From Actinomycetota bacterium (lineage in GTDB: Bacteria > Actinomycetota > Aquicultoria > SKW223): a DNA stretch of 38,198 nt. The notes below the pieces were generated by a model. The model saw only the letters and a program-made list of their open reading frames with translations, ran no database searches and was not told where the DNA came from. Numbering within the stretch: position 1 is the first letter of the stretch; every line of letters begins with the position of its first letter. The DNA is taken from NCBI GenBank assembly GCA_026417515.1, contig JAOADC010000057.1:1-38198 (forward strand), in the 5' to 3' direction. A program made the position numbers and the translations under genes. This document shows positions 7,439-22,460 of the stretch, in pieces.

Positions 7439-7896
7439 ACCAATCCACCTTCTCCAAAAAGGTATTCATAAATTAGGATAAGAACTCCTCCGGTAATCGC
7501 AACATCTGCAAAGTTAAAAGTGCTGAAGAAAGGTATATTTATGAAGTCGACCACCCATCCAAGAAAAAGTCTATCAAAAAAATTAGATATGGCGCCACCA
7601 AAAATAAGACCAAGAAAAATAGGAGAAAGCCGAGTCCGAGTGATTTCTGGAAAAAAAACAAGTATAGAAAGAAAGCCAATAAATCCAACGAGTGATAGGA
7701 AAAGAGACATTCCTTTGTATAAACCAAATGCAATTCCAGTGTTTTTAATAAACTCCAGACTAAGTATTCCAGGAATTAATTCCATGCCATTGCTATTGTA
7801 AAGATATTTTTTCGCCAAAAACTTTGTAAGTTGGTCAAGACATACCACTATTGAGAAAACTGATATTGACAAAAGTATTCTTCTGCTAAAAAACAT
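7435..7896 (-). CDS. lspA: Lipoprotein signal peptidase LspA (signal peptidase II)
   Basis: A 153-residue, four-helix membrane aspartyl protease that removes the signal peptide from diacylglyceryl-modified prolipoproteins. The diagnostic motifs are present: GAISNFFDR (to Asp108), WVVDFI (Asp117) and FNFADVAITGG (Asp131); Asp117 and Asp131 form the catalytic dyad. KNTGIAFGL is the usual conserved membrane-face segment. Its TGA stop shares bases with the putative CTG start of lgt, so the two enzymes that act in sequence on lipoproteins are tightly coupled. At least PstS and the thioredoxin-like protein in this window are predicted substrates. Confidence 0.96.
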   Translation of the reverse strand: MFFSRRILLSISVFSIVVCLDQLTKFLAKKYLYNSNGMELIPGILSLEFIKNTGIAFGLYKGMSLFLSLVGFIGFLSILVFFPEITRTRLSPIFLGLIFGGAISNFFDRLFLGWVVDFINIPFFSTFNFADVAITGGVLILIYEYLFGEGGLV

Positions 7897-7914
7897 AAGC
7901 CCTGTCAGTCTTTT

Positions 7915-10665
7915 TTAGGATGAGAGCACCTCTTTACACCTGAGACATATTCCTTCTTTGACATCAGACGAGTAGTTCCAGCAGCGATTACATTTTTCTG
8001 CGTTCGATTTTCTTAAACCATACCATCCAGATTCAAGTTCCTGTGAAACTGGCAAATCACTGACCGGCTCATTAATAATGTTTACATTTCTGCTTGTGAA
8101 AATGAAGTAAAGATCCTGCTTGCTATTAATAAGAGTGTCTCTTAATCCTTCTGAAGGAACTATAAAAACTTCTGCTTCCATCATTGTTTTAAGAACGCTA
8201 GAACTCTTTGCCATCTCATAGACTTTAAGATAATCCTTTCTTACCTTTAGAAGCATTTCCCATCTTTCCAGGTGATCTTCATCAATCTTAATCCAATCCA
8301 GGTCATCGAATAATTCAAGGTGAATACTCTCTTCCTTCTTTCCTGGTAGGTAATCATAAGCCTGTTCAGAAGTGAATGGAATAATTGGTGCAAGCAATTT
8401 TAAAATCGGTTTTAACATCCCATAAATGGCAGATTGAGTTGATCTTCTCTCTTGACTGTCTGGAGCATCTGCATAAAGCCTGTCCTTTAGAACATCGAGA
8501 TAGAAGGAACTGAGTTCAACGACCATAAAATTGTGAATACCATGAACAACGTTATGGAAACGATAATTTTCATATGCTTCTAGAACCTGTTTGTAGAGTT
8601 GCTTGAATTTCATTAAGATGAAACGGTCTATGCTAGTCTGTTTCTCAAAGGTAACAAAATGTTTATCAGGTTCAAAGTCATAAAGGTTTCCGAGCATAAA
8701 CCTTATGGTATTTCTTATCCTTCTATACACATCAACGGTTCTTTGAAGGATCTGTTCAGAGACTGCTATATCGCTTGAGTAATCAGATGATACGACCCAT
8801 AGTCTTAAGACGTCTGCCCCAAGTCTTTCGACCACATCAAGAGGGTCAACAACATTGCCCAGCGATTTGGACATTTTTCTTCCTTCTTCGTCAACGATGA
8901 AACCATGTGTGAGAACTGTCTTATATGGAGCTTCCATCGTAACCCCAACACTGGTTAGGAGGCTGGATTGAAACCATCCGCGGTGCTGGTCACTTCCTTC
9001 AAGATAGATGTCAGCCGGCCACTGAAGTTCTTCTCTGTTTCTAAGTACGGCAAAATGCGATATGCCTGATTCAAACCAGACATCAAAAATGTCGTCTTCC
9101 TTCTCAAATCTATTTGAGCCACACGAACTGCATTTGTGGTTTTTAGGAAGGAAGAATTGAACGTCGTTCTTAAACCAGGAATCAGCGCCATATTCTTCAA
9201 ATCTCTTTTCTATGGTGTTAAAAACTTCTTCTTCTCCCTGAACTGTTTGACAATCCGCACAATAGATAATGGGTATTGGAACTCCCCAGGATCTCTGTCT
9301 TGAAATGCACCAATCAGGCCTTTGTTCAACCATAGAAGAAATTCTTCTAATGCTCCACTCAGGAAGCCAATTCACCTTCTCTATAGCATCCAATGCCCAT
9401 TTCCTTAAGCCGTCGCTGCTAACAGAGATAAACCACTGTTCAGTTGCTCTAAAAATTACTGGATTCTTACACCTCCAGCAGTGAGGGTAGGAGTGAGTAA
9501 TTGAATCTGATTCAAGAAGCATTCCTATTTCCTTAAGACGCTCAATGATTGCTAAATTTCCGTTATTTATATGCATACCGGAGAATTCGCCTGCTTCATC
9601 TGTAAAAAATCCTTCGTCGTCGACAGGAACTGGCATTGGAAGGTTGTATTTAACTCCCAGATGGTAGTCATCTTCTCCATGGCCAGGTGCAATGTGCACG
9701 ATACCTGTTCCTGTTCCCAGATCTACAAAGTCAGCAAGGACACCTACTGAATTTCTACCAGGAAAAAGTGGATGCTCAAATTTTGACCCTTCGAATTCAG
9801 CACCTTTGAAAGACGCAATTTTTCTTGCTTCCTCGCCTATTGTCTGCGATGCAAGCTCTTCAGCAATTATTAATCTTTTTTCATCCTTTTCATAAACGCC
9901 ATATGAGGCGTCGGGATGGAAGGCAAGTGCAACGTTGGCAGGAAGTGTCCATGGAGTAGTTGTCCAGATAACAGCATAAACATTATTTAGGTTCAGTTTT
10001 TGAGGACCTTCAATTAGCTTAAAAAGTACCTTGATTGAAGGGGAGGTTTTATCGTAGTACTCTATTTCTGCCTCTGCAAGGGCTGTTTTATCCTTATAAC
10101 ACCAATAAATGGGCTTCTTTCCTCGATAAACCAAACCCTTTTGGTAAAGTTCCTTAAATGTTTTGACATTCGTTGCTTCGTACTTTTTATCCATTGTTAG
10201 ATAAGGTTTTCCCCAGGTTCCTAAAACACCAAGACGAATAAACTGGTTGCGTTGTCTCTCTATATATGTTTCAGCGTACTTTCTGCACAATTCTCTGAAT
10301 TCAGCTTGTGTAATCTGTTTGCGCTTCTCCCCTAATTGTTTTTCAACCTGTTGTTCAATAGGTTGACCATGGCAGTCCCATCCAGGTACAAAAGGTGAAT
10401 AATTTCCTTTCATCCAGTTATACCTGCAAACAAGGTCCTTAAGAACCTTATTGAGCGCATGTCCAACATGAATATCGCCATTCGCATATGGCGGTCCATC
10501 GTGAAGAATGAACGTTTCTCCTTTTCCTTTTCTTTGCATCAGTTTTTCATAGATATTCTGTTCAGCCCATCTTTCAAGCATTTTGGGCTCAAGTTCAGGA
10601 AGATTTGCCTTCATAGGAAAATCAGTTTTTGGTAAGTTCAATGTTTCTTTAAAATCTTCTGCCAC
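7915..10665 (-). CDS. ileS: Isoleucyl-tRNA synthetase
   Basis: 916 residues, typical of bacterial type 1 IleRS. The class I signature is PPYANGDIHVGHA (HVGH at 66-69), the KMSKS loop is at 597-601, and the editing domain carries GWDCHG and GTGIVHIAPGHGEDD. A C-terminal zinc-binding segment (CNRCW...CLRC) is complete, as in the eubacterial form. The start is a GTG with a strong GGGAGGA ribosome site. The upstream gap is only 80 bp with no T-box-like leader, so it is probably expressed from the divIVA operon. ileS downstream of divIVA is the classic Gram-positive arrangement. Confidence 0.98.
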   Translation of the reverse strand: MAEDFKETLNLPKTDFPMKANLPELEPKMLERWAEQNIYEKLMQRKGKGETFILHDGPPYANGDIHVGHALNKVLKDLVCRYNWMKGNYSPFVPGWDCHGQPIEQQVEKQLGEKRKQITQAEFRELCRKYAETYIERQRNQFIRLGVLGTWGKPYLTMDKKYEATNVKTFKELYQKGLVYRGKKPIYWCYKDKTALAEAEIEYYDKTSPSIKVLFKLIEGPQKLNLNNVYAVIWTTTPWTLPANVALAFHPDASYGVYEKDEKRLIIAEELASQTIGEEARKIASFKGAEFEGSKFEHPLFPGRNSVGVLADFVDLGTGTGIVHIAPGHGEDDYHLGVKYNLPMPVPVDDEGFFTDEAGEFSGMHINNGNLAIIERLKEIGMLLESDSITHSYPHCWRCKNPVIFRATEQWFISVSSDGLRKWALDAIEKVNWLPEWSIRRISSMVEQRPDWCISRQRSWGVPIPIIYCADCQTVQGEEEVFNTIEKRFEEYGADSWFKNDVQFFLPKNHKCSSCGSNRFEKEDDIFDVWFESGISHFAVLRNREELQWPADIYLEGSDQHRGWFQSSLLTSVGVTMEAPYKTVLTHGFIVDEEGRKMSKSLGNVVDPLDVVERLGADVLRLWVVSSDYSSDIAVSEQILQRTVDVYRRIRNTIRFMLGNLYDFEPDKHFVTFEKQTSIDRFILMKFKQLYKQVLEAYENYRFHNVVHGIHNFMVVELSSFYLDVLKDRLYADAPDSQERRSTQSAIYGMLKPILKLLAPIIPFTSEQAYDYLPGKKEESIHLELFDDLDWIKIDEDHLERWEMLLKVRKDYLKVYEMAKSSSVLKTMMEAEVFIVPSEGLRDTLINSKQDLYFIFTSRNVNIINEPVSDLPVSQELESGWYGLRKSNAEKCNRCWNYSSDVKEGICLRCKEVLSS

Positions 10666-10745
10666 TTTTTCCTCCCGAATTCTTTTAAGCGCGGTTTGGT
10701 TTTAAAGTAAATAATTAGTAAATATGCAACAGAAAAACGAAAAAA

Positions 10746-11030
10746 TCAATTGTTAAGGGCTCTAATAAAAGCCTTTGCGCAAGCATTTGAATCTAAATTA
10801 TGTGCAAAAATCTTTTTCACCTTTGATTTATGCCCTTTTACTATTTCAACCTTAGTCGAAAGTATTTTTTCTAAAAAAGATACTAATTCAGAGTTTGCTC
10901 TGTTCTCAATCGGCTTTGACTTAACATCAATGATAAGCCAGCGGTCATTTATTTCAACCAGTTTGGTTCGCGGCCTTTCAGTTCTAACCTTAACTGAAAA
11001 AAGGCAACCATTTTTTACGTCTGAAAGCAT
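10746..11030 (-). CDS. yggU: DUF167/YggU-family protein
   Basis: 94 residues matching the small YggU/DUF167 family: a basic first half (FSVKVRTERPRTKL), the core segment IDVKSKPIENRANSELVSFL, then VEIVKGHKSKVKKI. Structures of the family are known, the function is not. It sits between divIVA (3 bp gap) and ileS, the place this family often takes in the ylm/divIVA cluster. No convincing ribosome site is present, suggesting coupling to divIVA. Confidence 0.87.
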   Translation of the reverse strand: MLSDVKNGCLFSVKVRTERPRTKLVEINDRWLIIDVKSKPIENRANSELVSFLEKILSTKVEIVKGHKSKVKKIFAHNLDSNACAKAFIRALNN

Positions 11031-11698: not shown

Positions 11699-11989
11699 CT
11701 AAAAAAGAATATTTATTATGGTAAACAACGCACGCTCAATAAGCTGCAGGAGAATTACTGCTATAAATGGTGAGAAATCTATGCCAATTCCTCCAGAACC
11801 AACCACAGGAATAAAACGTCTTATTAGAGAAAGAAAAGGTTCTGTGATTTCGTAAACAAATATATAGAAAGAGCGAAAAATCCTATTATTTGGTACAGGA
11901 ATCCAAGAAAAAATTACCCTTATTATTATCAGCCAAAAATAGATTTCAAAAGCGAGGCTTAAAAGTTGTAACAGGTAAAATTTAAACAA
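11699..11989 (-). CDS. yggT: YggT-family membrane protein
   Basis: 96 residues with two membrane segments (about 7-28 and 70-94) separated by the conserved IRVIFSWIPVPNNRIFRSFYIFVYEITEPFL and RRFIPVVGSGGIGIDFSPFIAVILL. This is the YggT/YlmG family, encoded next to sepF and divIVA in most Gram-positive-type bacteria and related to chloroplast proteins affecting nucleoid distribution. Its molecular role is not established. It starts 2 bp after the proC stop. Confidence 0.92.
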   Translation of the reverse strand: MFKFYLLQLLSLAFEIYFWLIIIRVIFSWIPVPNNRIFRSFYIFVYEITEPFLSLIRRFIPVVGSGGIGIDFSPFIAVILLQLIERALFTIINILF

Positions 11990-11991
11990 AA

Positions 11992-12801
11992 CTAATCATC
12001 TCGCTTCCCGAGTTTCTTTGCCCTCTCATAAGCAGAATTAACAGCTTCCATTACTGCATATTTAAAGGAATGTTTCTCGAGTTTCTTGAGTCCTGCAATT
12101 GTTGTTCCTCCCGGAGATGAAACCATCTCAATAAGTTCAGAAGTGGCCAAACCACTTTGCCTAAAGAGCTCGCATGCACCAAGAATTGTCTCCAAAGCCA
12201 TCTTTTCAGCAACCTTAGCAGGCAAGCCAATTTCAATCCCTGCTTCTTTTAGTGCTTCAAGAAAACGAAAAACAAAAGCTGGCCCACTTCCTGAAAGAGC
12301 AGTCGCAGCATTAATTTTGTCTTCCTCAAGAACTACGACTTCTCCAACTGATTTAAAAACCTCAATAACTTTAATAAACTCGTCTTCAGACACGTATCTG
12401 CTTCTGGCAACCGCTGTAACTCCTTTTCCAACGACTGCGGGTAGGTTTGGCATAGCTCTAACAACTTTAAATTCAGAAAACTTTCGGTAATAATCAGTAG
12501 TTACTCCTGCAGCAATGGAAACAAGAACGGAATCTGACTTAACATTTTTGATTTCTTCGAGAACACTTTTCACCTGGTCAGGCTTTACACTTATTATGGT
12601 GATTTCTGAATTTGCAAATACCTGACCTGCTGATTCAAGAAAAACCGCATTTGTTTCCTTAACTACTTCCTCTGCTCTTTCTTTGCTTAATTCAAAAAAA
12701 CAGATATTCTGACTGCCCTTTAAAAAAGATAAGCCCTTTATAAGGGCACCACCCATTTTTCCTGCGCCTATGACACCGAATTCAAATTGTTTATTTTCCA
12801 T
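11992..12801 (-). CDS. proC: Pyrroline-5-carboxylate reductase
   Basis: 269 residues; makes proline from pyrroline-5-carboxylate using NAD(P)H. The N-terminal Rossmann motif is GVIGAGKMGGALIKGL, and the C-terminal dimerisation domain carries the signature ALSGSGPAFVFRFLEAL and SSPGGTTIAGLKKLE. Length is normal. It lies between sepF (3 bp) and yggT (2 bp); proC beside yggS/yggT is a frequent conserved neighbour in many bacteria although no functional reason is known. Confidence 0.97.
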   Translation of the reverse strand: MENKQFEFGVIGAGKMGGALIKGLSFLKGSQNICFFELSKERAEEVVKETNAVFLESAGQVFANSEITIISVKPDQVKSVLEEIKNVKSDSVLVSIAAGVTTDYYRKFSEFKVVRAMPNLPAVVGKGVTAVARSRYVSEDEFIKVIEVFKSVGEVVVLEEDKINAATALSGSGPAFVFRFLEALKEAGIEIGLPAKVAEKMALETILGACELFRQSGLATSELIEMVSSPGGTTIAGLKKLEKHSFKYAVMEAVNSAYERAKKLGKRDD

Positions 12802-12804
12802 ACT

Positions 12805-13269
12805 TTAAAAATCCCCTATACCAAGTTCTTTAAAGAAAGTTTCTCTTAAACGCCTTCTATCTTCAGGTGTTATCTCTATATTTTTTGGAGTGATAATGTA
12901 GATTCGGTTTCCGATTGGAGTTATCCCTCCTTTTAGTGCATAAACCATTCCGCTCACGAAGTCGATAACTCTTCTTGCCGTAATGTCATCAGCGCCTTGA
13001 AGATTCACTATAACAGGTATACCTATTCGATATTTGTTTGCAAGAACCTGAACGTCATTAAAAACCTTTGGTTCAGCCACGAAAACGCGAATTGATGGAC
13101 CTTCTCCATCGATTGCTCGCAATACTCTTTCACTGGGTTTTCTTGTTCTGATTTTCTTAACGACTGGTTCTTCCTCAAACTCATCAACTTCATCCTGCCC
13201 GAAATGTTGTTCTTCTTCTTCTATTCCCAAAAACTTCATTGCCTTCTTTATAAATCCCTCTGATGTCAT
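12805..13269 (-). CDS. sepF: Cell division protein SepF
   Basis: 154 residues. An N-terminal amphipathic helix (FIKKAMKFLGIE) for membrane binding is followed by an acidic linker and the SepF core, with VFNDVQVLANKYRIGIPVIVNLQG...ARRVIDFVSGMVYALKGGITPIG. SepF bundles FtsZ and anchors it to the membrane. No ftsA is found between ftsQ and ftsZ in this window, so SepF is likely the main FtsZ anchor, as in Actinomycetota. It should bind the FtsZ C-terminal peptide encoded at the end of the ftsZ gene (29576-30631). Confidence 0.95.
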   Translation of the reverse strand: MTSEGFIKKAMKFLGIEEEEQHFGQDEVDEFEEEPVVKKIRTRKPSERVLRAIDGEGPSIRVFVAEPKVFNDVQVLANKYRIGIPVIVNLQGADDITARRVIDFVSGMVYALKGGITPIGNRIYIITPKNIEITPEDRRRLRETFFKELGIGDF

Positions 13270-18008: not shown

Positions 18009-18851
18009 TTACCTCCTTAAAGTTATTATCCCTGCCTGACGGCCTGTAATTTTGTTTCTCCGATAAGAATAATAATTCCTGTTTTCAAAAGTGCAATCGT
18101 TAATATTGTAAGCAATTGAAGAAACTTTTTTTTCTTTATTTTCATCTATATCGCGTGCATCAAGAAAATTATCAGCAACACCCATTTGTTTAAGAATTTG
18201 AAAACCAATAGATTTTAGACTTACATACTTATTCTCTGCAATATTCATAATGCCAGTTTTAAATCTTTCCTCAATTATTAAAGATACATCTTCTCCAACT
18301 CTGTAGCACTTCTCGCAAATAGAAGGTCCAAAGAAAAATAGAAATTCCTGTGCTCCTAAATTTTGTAAGGATTCAATAGTTCTTTCAATGACTCCTTCCA
18401 CAAGCCCTCTCCATCCCGCATGGATCGCTGCAACTATGCCTGGTTCTGCCACTACAAGTACTGGCAAGCAATCTGCAGTGAGAACACCAATCGGTATGCT
18501 GGCAGCGTCTGTAATAAGAGAATCAGCTTTTATATCCAAGTGCTCTATTCTAATATCTCTTAATTTTTCTTTTCCAAAATAAACGATATCAGAACCATGA
18601 ACTTGTTGAATGGTTATAAAATCCTCCATACCAAGGAGCTTCGCAACCCTTCTTCTGTTCCTCTTAACAGTTTTTTCATCATCTCCAACATAAGGAGAGA
18701 GGTTGAGGCTTTTGTAATCTCCGGTAGAAAATCCTCCATTCTTGGTCGTAAATATAAGAGTTACTTCAAAATTGCTACCAAGAACATTGAAAGCGAAAGA
18801 TACGCTTCCCTTTGATTTCGTTAGAATTTCATAATCCACAAAGACCTTCAT
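18009..18851 (-). CDS. pgeF: PgeF/YfiH family protein (peptidoglycan editing factor, LACC1-like)
   Basis: 280 residues. The metal-binding residues of the family are all seen: His85 (QQVHGSDIV), Cys128 (LTADCLPVLV) and His144 (AIHAGWRGLVEG), plus CYRVGEDV. Family members have been reported as purine nucleoside phosphorylases/adenosine deaminases, as multicopper-like oxidases, and in E. coli as a peptidoglycan stem editing factor; the role here is not decidable. As ylmD it normally sits just before yggS. The ATG lacks a ribosome site and starts 8 nt after a -10 box, so the mRNA may be leaderless. It leads the pst operon. Confidence 0.93.
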   Translation of the reverse strand: MKVFVDYEILTKSKGSVSFAFNVLGSNFEVTLIFTTKNGGFSTGDYKSLNLSPYVGDDEKTVKRNRRRVAKLLGMEDFITIQQVHGSDIVYFGKEKLRDIRIEHLDIKADSLITDAASIPIGVLTADCLPVLVVAEPGIVAAIHAGWRGLVEGVIERTIESLQNLGAQEFLFFFGPSICEKCYRVGEDVSLIIEERFKTGIMNIAENKYVSLKSIGFQILKQMGVADNFLDARDIDENKEKKVSSIAYNINDCTFENRNYYSYRRNKITGRQAGIITLRR

Positions 18852-18888: not shown

Positions 18889-18900
18889 ATTTTAAATCAG

Positions 18901-18907
18901 AGAGGTG
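18901..18907 (+). promoter_or_regulatory. Ribosome binding site that decides the trx start
   Basis: AGAGGTG lies 6 nt before a TTG at 18914. A GTG at 18905 in the same frame is inside this ribosome site and is therefore an unlikely start; the TTG gives a normal lipoprotein signal beginning Met-Asn-Leu-Lys. Confidence 0.6.
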
Positions 18908-18913
18908 ATAATT

Positions 18914-19360
18914 TTGAACTTAAAAACTTTTAGAACTCTTCTTATTGCACCTTTGATTGTGCTTATTTTCCTTGCATACGGGTGCAATCCTTCGCAGGTT
19001 GGTAGCAGTTCAAAAGCTGGAAACCCCGAAGAACTTAAGTTAGCAGGTACTGATAATAAAGGAATTCCAAAGCTAGTTTCTGTAGGAAAGCCGGTTGTTA
19101 TTATGTTTACTGGTAATTACTGACCAACATGCAGACAGATGAAGCCCATCGTCGATGGGCTAATAGAAGAATACAGTGGAAAAGTAAAATTCTACTATGT
19201 TGATGTTGAGAAACAAGAATTTGTAGATCTGTTTTCTGCTTATCGTGTAAACGCTGTACCAACATTTGCCTTCATTAATAATGACGGTTCCCTGAACGAT
19301 TATTTCGTAGGCGGTATGAGCAAAGACGAACTGAAACAAAAAATAGATAATCTAAAGTAA
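18914..19360 (+). CDS. Selenocysteine-containing thioredoxin-fold lipoprotein (in-frame TGA at 19121-19123)
   Basis: Read through one TGA, this is a 148-residue protein: a lipoprotein signal ending FLAYGC (Cys29 in the full frame), a linker, then a thioredoxin domain. The active site is FTGNY-U70-P-T-C73-RQMKP, where U70 is encoded by TGA at the place of the first redox Cys. After it come KVKFYYVDVEKQEFVDLFSAYRV, the cis-Pro loop AVPTFAF and a final helix, all in the same frame with no disruption. Eight-base stem arms with a GTC loop follow the TGA at bacterial SECIS distance. TGA is a normal stop elsewhere in the window. It likely works as an extracytoplasmic thiol/selenol reductase or peroxide-handling protein. 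A recent nonsense mutation of a Cys codon is the alternative, less likely. Confidence 0.85.
19121..19123 (+). other. Recoded UGA, predicted selenocysteine codon
   Basis: This TGA is in frame with both the signal-peptide half and the thioredoxin half of the gene and falls exactly on the N-terminal Cys of a C-P-T-C motif. The second Cys (TGC, 19130-19132) is kept, so the site would form a Sec-Cys selenylsulfide. Confidence 0.82.
19143..19161 (+). promoter_or_regulatory. Predicted bacterial SECIS hairpin
   Basis: AGCCCATC (19143-19150) and GATGGGCT (19154-19161) are perfect complements around the loop GTC. The loop begins 27 nt after the TGA. Known bacterial SECIS elements have a short stem, a small apical loop with a G in its first positions and a spacing of roughly 16-37 nt from the UGA, for SelB recognition; all are met. 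The stem is GC-rich in an AT-rich gene while still encoding a normal thioredoxin helix. Confidence 0.75.
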
Positions 19361-19386: not shown

Positions 19387-19420
19387 AGGCTGCCCCTTAT
19401 AAGGGGCAGCCTCTTTTTTT
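19387..19420 (+). terminator. Rho-independent terminator between convergent genes
   Basis: AGGCTGCCCCTT (19387-19398) pairs perfectly with AAGGGGCAGCCT (19401-19412) around AT, followed by CTTTTTTT on the plus strand. It ends the thioredoxin transcript. The minus strand after the stem is AT-rich (TTAATTAATTTTT), so it may also serve the convergent oxidoreductase gene. Confidence 0.9.
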
Positions 19421-22400
19421 AAAGATTCTCTCTAATATAGTTAACCATTTTAGGTGCTACGAGTGGCGCCACCTTTGGAAGCATCTTTGGAAGCAAATTA
19501 TTCATTGCTTCTGGTAGAAGGTCAGGCATCTGTTCTTTCATAAACTCAGGCATAGGCACTCTTTTCTCAACTTCTTGAAGCATATCAGGAAGCACTTTTG
19601 GCATAATTCCAGGCATCAGATAAGGCATCATCATAGGTATCATTTTTTCCATCAATCGCAGCATTCCAGGAACCCTTTTTGCTGCTTTCATCATCGAAAC
19701 CATAAAACCAGGCATTGCATCAAACATCTGAGGGAATAAAGACTCCATAAGATCAGCCATATTCTTGGGCTGAAGAAGATTTATCATTGCTTCAAAAGTT
19801 ACCCACATCTGAAGAGCGTCACTTGTACCATCCTTAAATTGATAACCGAGCGATTCTGCCACAAAAGAAGCAAGGTCTTTTACTTTAATGTCTAAACCTT
19901 TCTTCTCTGCTGAAACTCTTAATTGGAACTGGCAACATGGGCATACAGCAAGAACAGTATTTGCTCCTGCTTTCTTTGCCTCGTTCAGTCTTATAGAACC
20001 TATCTCGTAAGCAACCTCAGGCTCACTGACTAAAGTAAGTACACTACCACAGCAGTGTGCCTTATCTCTGTTGTGTTCCATCTCCTTATACTCAACGCCT
20101 GGTACAGACTGAATTAGTTTACGAGGTTCCTCGTAAACACCAAGTGCCCTACCCATATGACAACTATCATGGAAGGTTACTTTTTCTTTGATTTCTTTCA
20201 TATAAGGTAAATCTCCAGCCTTCTCAGCAAGGACTTCAGAATAGTGTTTAGCCTCAAATGGATACTCGATGCCCTTTTCCTTTGCCCATTCTTTGTAGTA
20301 GTGCTTCCAGACAAGGTAACAAGCAGGGCAACTGGTAACGACTGTTTTAACTCCTCTTTCTTTCATTTTCGAAATGTTGTGTCTCATAATATCTTCAAAC
20401 ACGTCCCACTTACCTGCAACCAGCATTGGTATACCACAGCATGCTTCATCCTTTCCAAGATATGTAAATTCAATCCCAGCTTTATCAAGAAGCGTTACTG
20501 AAGCTTTAGCAATGTCGTTTTCTACATAGGAAGCTGTACATCCTGCAAAGTAAGCAATCTCGGCTTTATCTTTCAGTTTAGGCTTTATATCTTCAGGAAC
20601 CCAAGCATCTCTGTCTGAACTGAAGTTGGCCCAGATGTTCCTTTCCTTCTTTAAGGAGGCAGACATTATTTCAAATGGTGGAATTGTCATATAGTCCTTT
20701 TCCTGAATGAACAATCCACGAAGTTTTTCCCAGGATTCCTCTATGGGCATCTCAAGCTGGCATCTAAAACTGCACATCTCACAGGTCGTACAGACCATAA
20801 ACTTATTGACCTGATCCTGAGTAAGGATTTCCTTGCCTTCAATATACCGTTTTAGCCAGTAAAACTTTCCACGAGGTGATTGAGATTCAAATCCACGTCC
20901 ATAGAACTGGTCGCATTCTTTCACGCAATAACCACATTGTGCACAAGCATAAGCATACCAGGCTACATCTGGAGGAAGGTCTTTGGCTTTAAATGGCTTT
21001 TCTTTAGGCTCAACTTTGCTTGCATTGGCAAACAATCTTACAAGAGGTTCAAAAGCGCCAGCCACAGATATTAAACTCTTCAAAGATTTCTTGCCTTCCA
21101 ATTTTTCAGGGTTAAAGATTCCCTTTTCATCAAGTTCTTTCTTGAACTTCTTTATGCTATCAAGAACTTTTTCTCCAAAAACCCTTTCAGAAAAGCCTCC
21201 AAAATAAAGCCCTGCTGCATAAGGTCTTCCGCCATACTTAATTGCAGTCTTTAAGACAGATAAAGAAAGGCCAAAAGCAAAGTTATACGAAAACTTTCTT
21301 TCATCGTGCGGAATTAGCACTAAAAGAACAACTTCATTATTTTTTACAGCTGTTCCTTCGATAAGATAAGGCAGTTTAATATGGTGTTCAATTTCTGTAA
21401 GAACACTGTAAAGGGAGTTTAGAGGCACCACTGCTTCAGCAGGTATAAGAGATGGACCCAGTCTCTTGATTTTCATAGGATTGTAGCGTTGAAGCCACTC
21501 ATGTTTCGAGACTTCTTCAGAAAGAATCTCCCCACCATGTTTCTCAGCAATCTCTTTCAAACGCTCAAGTTCTTCGATTTTGCTTTCAAAAGCCCCTGCA
21601 AGAAGAATGTATTTTTCCGGAAGTTCAGGACCCTTATGTTCTGGATGTCCGTGATGGGTTCTAACAGGTAATTTGTTTTTAAGCGCAGCGCCTTGCGGAT
21701 TTATAAAGTTAACAGTATAGAGATTAAGATTCTTTACATAGATTTCTTTGATAGCTTCTGAAAAACTCTTTGGATCTTCAAAGGCAATAGCAAGAGGAAT
21801 GATATCTTCATCCTGTCTTACTTTTATCCAGAGCTTTGTAATAATTCCAAGACTTCCCATTGTTCCATAGACCAGGTTTAATTCGTCCCCCTCCAACTCT
21901 CTAACTTCTCCGTTTGAATCAACCAACCTCACCCGGGCTACACTTTCTATAAACCATCCATAGGCATAACCTCCGTAGCCGGTTCCACCCTGAGCAAACC
22001 AGCCACCGACTGTCGAAGCAGGTGCTGATGAAGGAAGTTGCTTCGGTGCCAGACCATATGGCTTGAGTTTCCTTTCAAGGTCTTCCCAGACCAAACCGCT
22101 GCCAACCTCAACAATCAAATTTTCTGAATCGACTGAGTAAATCTTATTTAATGAAGTCAAATCGAGAACAATTCCGCCAGAAGAAGGAACGACTCCTCCA
22201 TATCCAGATGTAGCAGCTGCTCTGGGTACAATCGGTATGTTGTTTTCCTTTGCCCATCTGACAAGTTTTATAACATCATCTTCGTCCATAGCCTTAACAA
22301 CTGCTGCAGGGACTGTATTGCCAATAAATGGTCTGATCAGAGATGGTAAAACTCCAATATCATGGTCATAGTAGTTTCTTTCCTCATCGAACCTTACCCA

Positions 22401-22460
22401 CTCACCAAATAGATCTTTAAGGTCCTGCTTCTGTCTCTCACCTAATTCGTAAACTCTCAT
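19419..22460 (-). CDS. FAD-linked oxidoreductase fused to Fe-S and CCG domains, with Met/Pro-rich tail
   Basis: 1013 residues. Residues 48-215 are an FAD_binding_4 (GlcD-type) domain (IVPRAAATSGYGG; PSSAPASTVGGWFAQGGTGYG), followed to about 450 by the FAD-oxidase C-terminal domain. Two ferredoxin-type clusters follow (C506-C509-C512-C516 and C557-C560-C563-C567), then two CCG domains (C641, CCG 674-676, C711/C714; C767, CCG 803-805, C840/C842/C843) as in GlpC/HdrB. It resembles D-lactate or glycolate dehydrogenases joined to their electron-transfer subunit. Substrate and acceptor are unknown. The last 115 residues are not part of the known enzyme and are rich in Met-Pro and Leu-Pro steps. Good GGAGGT ribosome site. 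Not fused to a membrane domain. Confidence 0.88.
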   Translation of the reverse strand: MRVYELGERQKQDLKDLFGEWVRFDEERNYYDHDIGVLPSLIRPFIGNTVPAAVVKAMDEDDVIKLVRWAKENNIPIVPRAAATSGYGGVVPSSGGIVLDLTSLNKIYSVDSENLIVEVGSGLVWEDLERKLKPYGLAPKQLPSSAPASTVGGWFAQGGTGYGGYAYGWFIESVARVRLVDSNGEVRELEGDELNLVYGTMGSLGIITKLWIKVRQDEDIIPLAIAFEDPKSFSEAIKEIYVKNLNLYTVNFINPQGAALKNKLPVRTHHGHPEHKGPELPEKYILLAGAFESKIEELERLKEIAEKHGGEILSEEVSKHEWLQRYNPMKIKRLGPSLIPAEAVVPLNSLYSVLTEIEHHIKLPYLIEGTAVKNNEVVLLVLIPHDERKFSYNFAFGLSLSVLKTAIKYGGRPYAAGLYFGGFSERVFGEKVLDSIKKFKKELDEKGIFNPEKLEGKKSLKSLISVAGAFEPLVRLFANASKVEPKEKPFKAKDLPPDVAWYAYACAQCGYCVKECDQFYGRGFESQSPRGKFYWLKRYIEGKEILTQDQVNKFMVCTTCEMCSFRCQLEMPIEESWEKLRGLFIQEKDYMTIPPFEIMSASLKKERNIWANFSSDRDAWVPEDIKPKLKDKAEIAYFAGCTASYVENDIAKASVTLLDKAGIEFTYLGKDEACCGIPMLVAGKWDVFEDIMRHNISKMKERGVKTVVTSCPACYLVWKHYYKEWAKEKGIEYPFEAKHYSEVLAEKAGDLPYMKEIKEKVTFHDSCHMGRALGVYEEPRKLIQSVPGVEYKEMEHNRDKAHCCGSVLTLVSEPEVAYEIGSIRLNEAKKAGANTVLAVCPCCQFQLRVSAEKKGLDIKVKDLASFVAESLGYQFKDGTSDALQMWVTFEAMINLLQPKNMADLMESLFPQMFDAMPGFMVSMMKAAKRVPGMLRLMEKMIPMMMPYLMPGIMPKVLPDMLQEVEKRVPMPEFMKEQMPDLLPEAMNNLLPKMLPKVAPLVAPKMVNYIRENL

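What the first reader, a model, noticed from the sequence alone, without database searches (positions are those of the whole stretch)
18914..19360. Unannotatable-as-is selenoprotein: membrane-anchored thioredoxin with a U-P-T-C active site
A TGA interrupts a thioredoxin-fold lipoprotein at exactly the first redox Cys. Both halves are in one frame, the second Cys and the cis-Pro loop are intact, and a perfect 8-bp stem with a GTC loop begins 20 nt after the TGA, with its loop 27 nt away, as expected of a bacterial SECIS. TGA is otherwise a real stop in the window. An ordinary gene caller would report two fragments or nothing. A Sec-containing thioredoxin tethered outside the cell would be a notable redox component, possibly for peroxide defence or disulfide reduction in an anaerobe.
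Basis: partly seen in the sequence, partly recalled or inferred. Interest (0 to 1): 0.88.

Follow-up and report, generated by a model that had tools for sequence, protein, structure and literature searches.

The report
Membrane-anchored selenocysteine thioredoxin in Actinomycetota bacterium
An uncultured bacterium makes a small redox protein, tethered outside its cell membrane, in which a 'stop' codon is read as the rare amino acid selenocysteine; the reading is well supported and widespread in relatives, but it is a new branch of an already known kind of protein.

Summary
TGA 19121-19123 sits in frame at the first redox position of a thioredoxin-fold lipoprotein (18914-19360, U-P-T-C). A hairpin at 19143-19161 (8 bp, GUC loop, 27 nt after the UGA) meets every published constraint for a bacterial SECIS. 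The same genome carries selA, selB and a UCA tRNA-Sec in a row, with selD close by; SelD and a peroxiredoxin there also read UGA at their active sites. Over 20 relatives in the class (Ca. Aquicultoria, Actinomycetota), plus Chloroflexota, Coriobacteriia and Spirochaetota, have TGA at the same position. The hairpin covaries, is stronger than synonymous recodings predict (median z -2.2), and is missing from Cys homologues (median z 0.0), one of which is a true Cys orthologue. Sec-containing thioredoxins are known; what is new is an exported, lipid-anchored UPxC subfamily with no curated model. Most likely it is a CcdA-fed disulfide reductase outside the membrane. Apocytochrome c is the best-guess client: the genome has ccmEFABC without ccmG beside it, and in four relatives two such genes flank a selenocysteine multihaem cytochrome. 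That role is inferred, not shown.

The parts
18900..18907 (+). Shine-Dalgarno-like GAGAGGTG, 6 nt before the TTG start
   Evidence: sequence
18914..19360 (+). Complete selenoprotein ORF, 148 aa: signal/lipobox, linker, thioredoxin domain with U-P-T-C; TTG start, TAA stop
   Evidence: Pfam PF00085 9e-17; AlphaFold pLDDT 86, domain blocks 94-98; Foldseek hits thioredoxins
18971..18985 (+). Lipobox LAYG|C; lipidated Cys24 expected to anchor the protein outside the membrane
   Evidence: sequence; most homologues in alignment A1 share the signal + Cys arrangement
19121..19123 (+). In-frame UGA = selenocysteine 70, at the nucleophilic redox position
   Evidence: TGA aligned at the same place in more than 20 relatives
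19130..19132 (+). Resolving Cys73 of U-P-T-C
   Evidence: invariant in alignment A1
19143..19161 (+). Bacterial SECIS hairpin, 8-bp stem and GUC loop, 27 nt after UGA
   Evidence: constraints from PMC13188914
19151..19153 (+). Apical loop GUC = codon of Val80; GU invariant in 39 of 39 aligned Sec homologues (12 of them found with a pattern that required GT)
19259..19261 (+). cis-Pro116 loop of the thioredoxin fold
   Evidence: invariant in alignment A1
19387..19412 (+). Intrinsic terminator: 11-bp stem and U tract; a terminator-like site is also called on the other strand for the convergent gene

Best explanation
18914-19360 encodes a membrane-anchored selenoprotein thioredoxin. SelB, bound to the SECIS hairpin at 19143-19161, delivers Sec-tRNA(UCA) to UGA 19121-19123, giving a 148-aa lipoprotein whose thioredoxin domain faces the outside of the cytoplasmic membrane with a Sec-Pro-Thr-Cys site. 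Sec70 attacks a substrate disulfide and Cys73 resolves the mixed selenenylsulfide; the oxidised protein is re-reduced through a CcdA/DsbD-type membrane conduit from cytosolic thioredoxin (inferred). The most likely clients are disulfides of exported proteins, apocytochrome c haem-binding cysteines first among them (inferred, about 35%). The UGA recoding is strongly supported by comparative evidence; localisation follows from sequence; electron donor and client are inference.
For: selA, selB and tRNA-Sec (UCA, 79 bits) lie contiguously on contig C39, with selD (U at GUASK) about 1 kb further on beyond a LysR-type gene on the other strand; a Sec-peroxiredoxin (FVUATE) is on C45. TGA at the same column in relatives from many independent assemblies. 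A Cys orthologue lipoprotein (CGAC) in G011, without hairpin, joins the Sec clade with 97/83 support. Hairpin: Sec homologues median z -2.24 vs 0.01 for 31 Cys homologues, Mann-Whitney p 1e-7; Val at +10 in 29/31 Sec vs 4/31 Cys homologues, p 7e-11. Covariation at pairs 26-36 (CG 21, GC 10, UA 5) and 27-35 (AU 18, CG 10, GC 8); whole-helix score 0.342 vs 0.130 shuffled, 0/500, and at most 0.101 when slid. A pattern holding the TGA, C and SECIS loop found only 29 stretches in 257 Gb, 26 of them encoding U-P-x-C thioredoxin-fold proteins. UGA-thioredoxin is commoner in genomes with Sec machinery: 23/42 vs 3/18, p 0.01. For the role: CcdA-like genes, TrxA/TrxB, ccmE-F-A-B-C, a pentahaem cytochrome, and only a peroxiredoxin found with PF00578. 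Sec-Trx/cytochrome/Sec-Trx order in four relatives.
Against: No expression, mass-spectrometry or selenium-labelling data. Three assemblies (G002, G022, G027; the last 97% complete) have the TGA gene but no selB over cut-off or tRNA-Sec found, probably a gap. The window gene itself stands alone, between unrelated minus-strand genes, so its context says nothing about its client. The lipobox has Tyr at -2, permitted but not typical. The deep branches of the tree are unresolved.
Confidence: 0.92

Rival explanations
1. The TGA is a true stop and the gene is a decaying pseudogene or two separate ORFs.
For: A standard caller sees two ORFs of 72 and 73 aa.
Against: The same TGA at the same codon in more than 20 genomes of several families with 26-35% protein identity on both sides of it; conserved SECIS with covariation; fully equipped Sec machinery.
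Confidence: 0.02
2. Sequencing or assembly error for TGC/TGT.
For: TGA and TGC differ by one base, and the genome is a 69-contig draft.
Against: Independent assemblies share the TGA; the hairpin is absent in real Cys homologues.
Confidence: 0.01
3. UGA is decoded as another amino acid (Trp, or Cys through a SelB-type system with a Cys tRNA) rather than Sec.
For: Several relatives, including G001 of the same family, carry a second SelB-like gene beside a tRNA-Cys of tRNA-Sec shape; in some delta-proteobacteria such tRNAs may read UGA (PMC7609411).
Against: TGA ends 10 of 33 window genes, so it is not Trp. In the own genome only one tRNA-Sec-like gene passes the cut-off, with anticodon UCA, beside selA and selB. 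The tRNA-Cys copies seen in relatives have anticodon GCA.
Confidence: 0.03
4. It is a selenoprotein, but its role is peroxide or oxidative-stress defence (a lipoprotein reductant for peroxiredoxin or methionine sulfoxide reductase) rather than disulfide or cytochrome reduction.
For: Sec favours fast peroxide chemistry; in Aquicultoraceae the gene lies beside a CsoR-type repressor and near TrxA and a flavin-reductase-like gene, compatible with stress or metal response.
Against: No signal sequence is evident in the genome's Sec-peroxiredoxin, so an exported partner for it is not apparent; the cytochrome linkage in four relatives points elsewhere.
Confidence: 0.25

Closest known systems
Sec-containing thioredoxin (PF00085, UxxC), a verified selenoprotein family in the 2026 inventory PMC13188914 and in Zhang et al. 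2006 PMC1794560
   Same: Thioredoxin fold, Sec at the first position of UxxC, UGA + bacterial SECIS
   Different: Exported and lipid-anchored; U-P-x-C nearly always; scores 54 bits against the thioredoxin equivalog cut-off of 96.8
Thiol:disulfide interchange selenoprotein (PF13098, UxxC), predicted family in PMC9312934
   Same: UxxC Trx-like domain; the window protein also passes PF13098 (45.9 vs 27 bits)
   Different: PF00085 scores higher; no sequence of that family was available for direct comparison
ResA / CcmG / TlpA exported thiol-disulfide oxidoreductases
   Same: Membrane-tethered Trx fold outside the membrane, inferred reductive role fed by CcdA
   Different: Scores far below ResA (36.8 vs 170 bits) and below PF08534/PF00578 cut-offs; Sec instead of Cys
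HUIPC-motif thioredoxin-like (seleno)protein NF047660 and SaoT NF040730
   Same: UxxC Trx-like selenoproteins
   Different: Scores far below cut-off (13.1 vs 105; SaoT matched by 1 of 17 members at 7e-6)

Membership tests
Bacterial UGA-encoded selenoprotein | In-frame UGA at a position that is Cys in homologues | tested here: met
Bacterial UGA-encoded selenoprotein | bSECIS: loop 3-9 nt, stem 4-16 bp, G in first two loop positions, UGA-loop spacing 16-37 nt, MFE <= -7.5 | tested here: met
   3 nt, 8 bp, G first then U, 27 nt, -12.8 kcal/mol (model)
Bacterial UGA-encoded selenoprotein | SelA, SelB, tRNA-Sec(UCA), SelD in the genome | tested here: met
Bacterial UGA-encoded selenoprotein | Selenium found in the full-length protein | not testable with these tools
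   needs 75Se labelling or mass spectrometry
Thioredoxin superfamily (PF00085) | Trx fold, C/UxxC at the start of the first domain helix, cis-Pro loop | tested here: met
   61.4 vs 23.5 bits; model helix 71-86 after the site; Foldseek prob 1.00, rmsd 1.2-1.6 for most top hits; Pro116 invariant
Canonical cytosolic thioredoxin (TIGR01068 equivalog) | Score over curated cut-off | tested here: not met
   54.2 vs 96.8 bits; tree places cytosolic TrxA in a separate clade, 99/99
ResA/CcmG/TlpA | Score over ResA or redoxin/AhpC-TSA cut-offs | tested here: not met
Bacterial lipoprotein | N-terminal signal with lipobox ending in Cys | tested here: met
   MNLKTFRTLLIAPLIVLIFLAYG|C by inspection; no signal predictor was available
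HUIPC Trx-like selenoprotein NF047660 | Score over cut-off | tested here: not met
   13.1 vs 105

The most novel reading that the evidence does not exclude
The family is a selenoenzyme version of the dedicated apocytochrome c thioreductase (a Sec 'CcmG'), co-evolved in Aquicultoria with multihaem cytochromes, one of which itself carries Sec in its first haem motif (C-T-U-H).
Probability: 0.28. Interest if true: 0.62.

Novelty: new member of a known kind. Interest (0 to 1): 0.38.

Why it matters
Gene callers without Sec awareness miss or split this gene, and no NCBIfam model covers it, so a recurrent exported selenoprotein across a candidate class and several phyla may be under-annotated. It adds an extracytoplasmic redox carrier to the selenium economy of small-genome Actinomycetota. 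The Val80/hairpin coupling is a clean case of an RNA signal dictating protein sequence. If the cytochrome link holds, it would tie selenium to cytochrome c assembly.

Tried and rejected
Protein-based scan of genome contigs with the window protein found nothing; a DNA pattern with TGA and SECIS loop worked instead. Rfam scan of the window gave no hit. Considered and rejected: pseudogene, sequencing error, UGA=Trp. Five Syntrophaceae/delta-proteobacterial hits of the pattern (L091, L092, L105, L113, L114) are UPHC proteins without a signal sequence; those placed in the tree branch far away; they were left out of the covariation set. L059 and L060 (UxxC but no GU loop, distant) were left out of the hairpin z-score comparison and the covariation set, but counted in the Val +10 test (29/31). 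Loci found with the GT-containing pattern were left out of both the Val +10 and the z-score tests to avoid circularity; they are in the covariation set, where the two informative pairs (26-36, 27-35) were not specified by the pattern.

Full report
WHAT WAS CLAIMED AND WHAT IS THERE. The window carries, on the + strand at 18914-19360, one frame interrupted by a single TGA at 19121-19123. Read through, it gives MNLKTFRTLLIAPLIVLIFLAYGCNPSQ...GKPVVIMFTGNYUPTCRQMKPIVDGL...NAVPTFAFINNDG...KIDNLK, 148 residues. A mechanical ORF list shows only two pieces of 72 and 73 aa. The gene stands alone between a minus-strand gene at 18009-18851 and a minus-strand 1013-aa FAD/Fe-S oxidoreductase at 19419-22460, and ends in a strong terminator.

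ORGANISM. The genome is 1.25 Mb in 69 contigs and rated 100% complete. Those taxa lie in the class Candidatus Aquicultoria, Actinomycetota. The window's genome is in the same class by the tool's kinship labels but in another family. G+C of the window is 38%.

SEC MACHINERY. On contig C39 lie selA (7539-8906, 619 bits), selB (8927-10798, 405 bits over a 242 cut-off) and a tRNA-Sec with anticodon UCA (10827-10915, 79 bits) in a row, then a LysR-type gene on the other strand, then selD (11943-12866, 347 bits) on the same strand. SelD itself has the in-frame TGA at the usual site (KKSGUASK). A peroxiredoxin on C45 has FVUATE at its peroxidatic site. So at least three UGA-Sec genes are present.

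HOMOLOGUES. 56 of 60 related genomes have thioredoxin matches; the best match per genome is very often one with exactly one in-frame TGA. Extracted and aligned, the TGA falls on the same column: UPxC in most, UGAC, USYC, UAVC or UAAC in a few. Most begin with a signal and Cys typical of lipoproteins. A Cys orthologue exists: G011 encodes a 138-aa lipoprotein with DFYADWCGACEKMEPVVEKL, which joins the Aquicultoraceae Sec clade with 97/83 support. A degenerate DNA pattern containing the TGA, the Cys and part of the SECIS found only 29 stretches in 257 Gb of genomes; 26 of them encode U-P-x-C thioredoxin-fold proteins, including Chloroflexota (Chloroflexia, Anaerolineae, Thermobaculum, Ardenticatenales), Coriobacteriia and Spirochaetia. 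UGA-thioredoxins are commoner in relatives with SelB or tRNA-Sec (23 of 42) than without (3 of 18), Fisher p 0.01; the three exceptions are probably assembly gaps.

SECIS. The published bacterial model asks for a 3-9 nt loop, a 4-16 bp stem, G in the first two loop positions, 16-37 nt from UGA to loop and MFE at most -7.5 (PMC13188914). Here: 3 nt, 8 bp, GU, 27 nt, -12.8. Against 400 synonymous recodings, Sec homologues found by protein search have median z -2.24 (59% at p<0.05), Cys homologues 0.01 (6%), Mann-Whitney p 1.2e-7. Pairs 26-36 and 27-35 (counted from the T of TGA) are C-G/G-C/U-A and A-U/C-G/G-C, paired in 37 of 39 sequences each; the covariation score is 0.342 against 0.130 in shuffles (0 of 500) and at most 0.101 when the partner is slid. 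These counts include related sequences, so they are not independent events, but the pair types recur in different families and phyla. At the protein level the loop GU fixes residue +10 as Val in 29 of 31 Sec homologues found by protein search, against 4 of 31 Cys homologues (p 7e-11).

FOLD. Pfam PF00085 61.4 bits (cut-off 23.5), PF13098 45.9 (cut-off 27). AlphaFold gives pLDDT 86 overall and 94-98 by blocks over the domain, with a helix starting right after the site. Foldseek returns ordinary thioredoxins, mostly at 1.2-1.6 A rmsd. No NCBIfam equivalog passes its cut-off for the window protein, and none of the families matched across the 17 aligned members is a dedicated model for this subfamily.

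MECHANISM. Shown by comparison: UGA recoding to Sec at a redox site. From sequence: export and lipid anchoring. From established thioredoxin chemistry: Sec as attacking nucleophile, Cys73 resolving. Inferred: electrons come through a CcdA/DsbD-type protein, of which the genome has candidates on C65, C63 and C7, from TrxB/TrxA on C63. The genome has ccmE, ccmF, ccmA, ccmB and ccmC in a row with no ccmG beside them (ccmB named from position and sequence, not from a family score), a lipoprotein pentahaem cytochrome (C7:28530-29798), and the AhpC/TSA profile, which often detects CcmG/ResA-like proteins too, finds only the peroxiredoxin. In four relatives (G010, G015, G019, G023) the gene order is Sec-thioredoxin, multihaem cytochrome, Sec-thioredoxin on one strand (in G019 the first gene is cut by the contig end). 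This makes apocytochrome c reduction my best guess for the client, about 35%, with a general disulfide-reductase or stress role as the main alternative.

NOVELTY. Sec-containing thioredoxins (PF00085, UxxC) have been known since the first bacterial selenoproteome surveys (PMC1794560, PMC1088965) and stand as a verified family in the 2026 inventory, whose main text has no mention of a lipoprotein or UPxC form. I file it as a new member of a known kind: an exported, lipid-anchored subfamily. It does not qualify as canonical thioredoxin, ResA/CcmG, HUIPC or TsoB by the curated models tested.

Noticed in passing
L051 4721-6049 (U codon 4889), L055 463, L056 4095, L057 reverse strand 5421: Multihaem (Cytochrome_C554 / ExtKL-like) cytochrome with a conserved in-frame TGA in its first haem motif, reading EGC-T-U-HAQ where relatives (own genome C7:28530-29798 included) have CxxCH: Sec with one residue fewer in a haem-binding site. 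Resembles the Geobacter selenoprotein ExtKL (NF040886 2.7e-13, below its cut-off)..
   Followed up: partly
L065 1584-1676, L071 3768-3857, L081 3872-3964, L082 1671-1762, L075 1506-1595, L072 1656-1745 and others: Several Aquicultoria and other Actinomycetota genomes have a second SelB-like gene beside a tRNA of tRNA-Sec shape but Cys anticodon GCA. This is the selC*/selB* arrangement described by Mukai et al. 2017 for delta-proteobacteria (review PMC7609411, which does not list Actinomycetota). No second SelB or second tRNA-Sec passed the cut-offs in the window's own genome.
   Followed up: partly
L154 (G000:C45:28024-28422, minus strand): Selenocysteine peroxiredoxin (PGDFTFVUATELSA) in the window's own genome.
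   Followed up: partly
L153 2373-2948 minus strand (G000:C15): Lipoprotein with weak Thioredoxin_2 similarity (E 5e-4, below cut-off), divergent from a Cytochrom_C_asm protein; no CxxC was seen in the stretch read. Possible redox-dead thioredoxin-like partner.
   Followed up: no
window 19419-19739 (3' end of the 1013-aa FAD/Fe-S oxidoreductase gene 19419-22460, minus strand): The C-terminal ~100 residues are strikingly Met/Pro rich (MPGFMVSMMKAAKRVPGMLRLMEKMIPMMMPYLMPGIMPKVLPDMLQEVEKRVPMPEFMKEQMPDLLPEAMNNLLPKMLPKVAPLVAPKM), an unusual tail for an enzyme of this kind.
   Followed up: no
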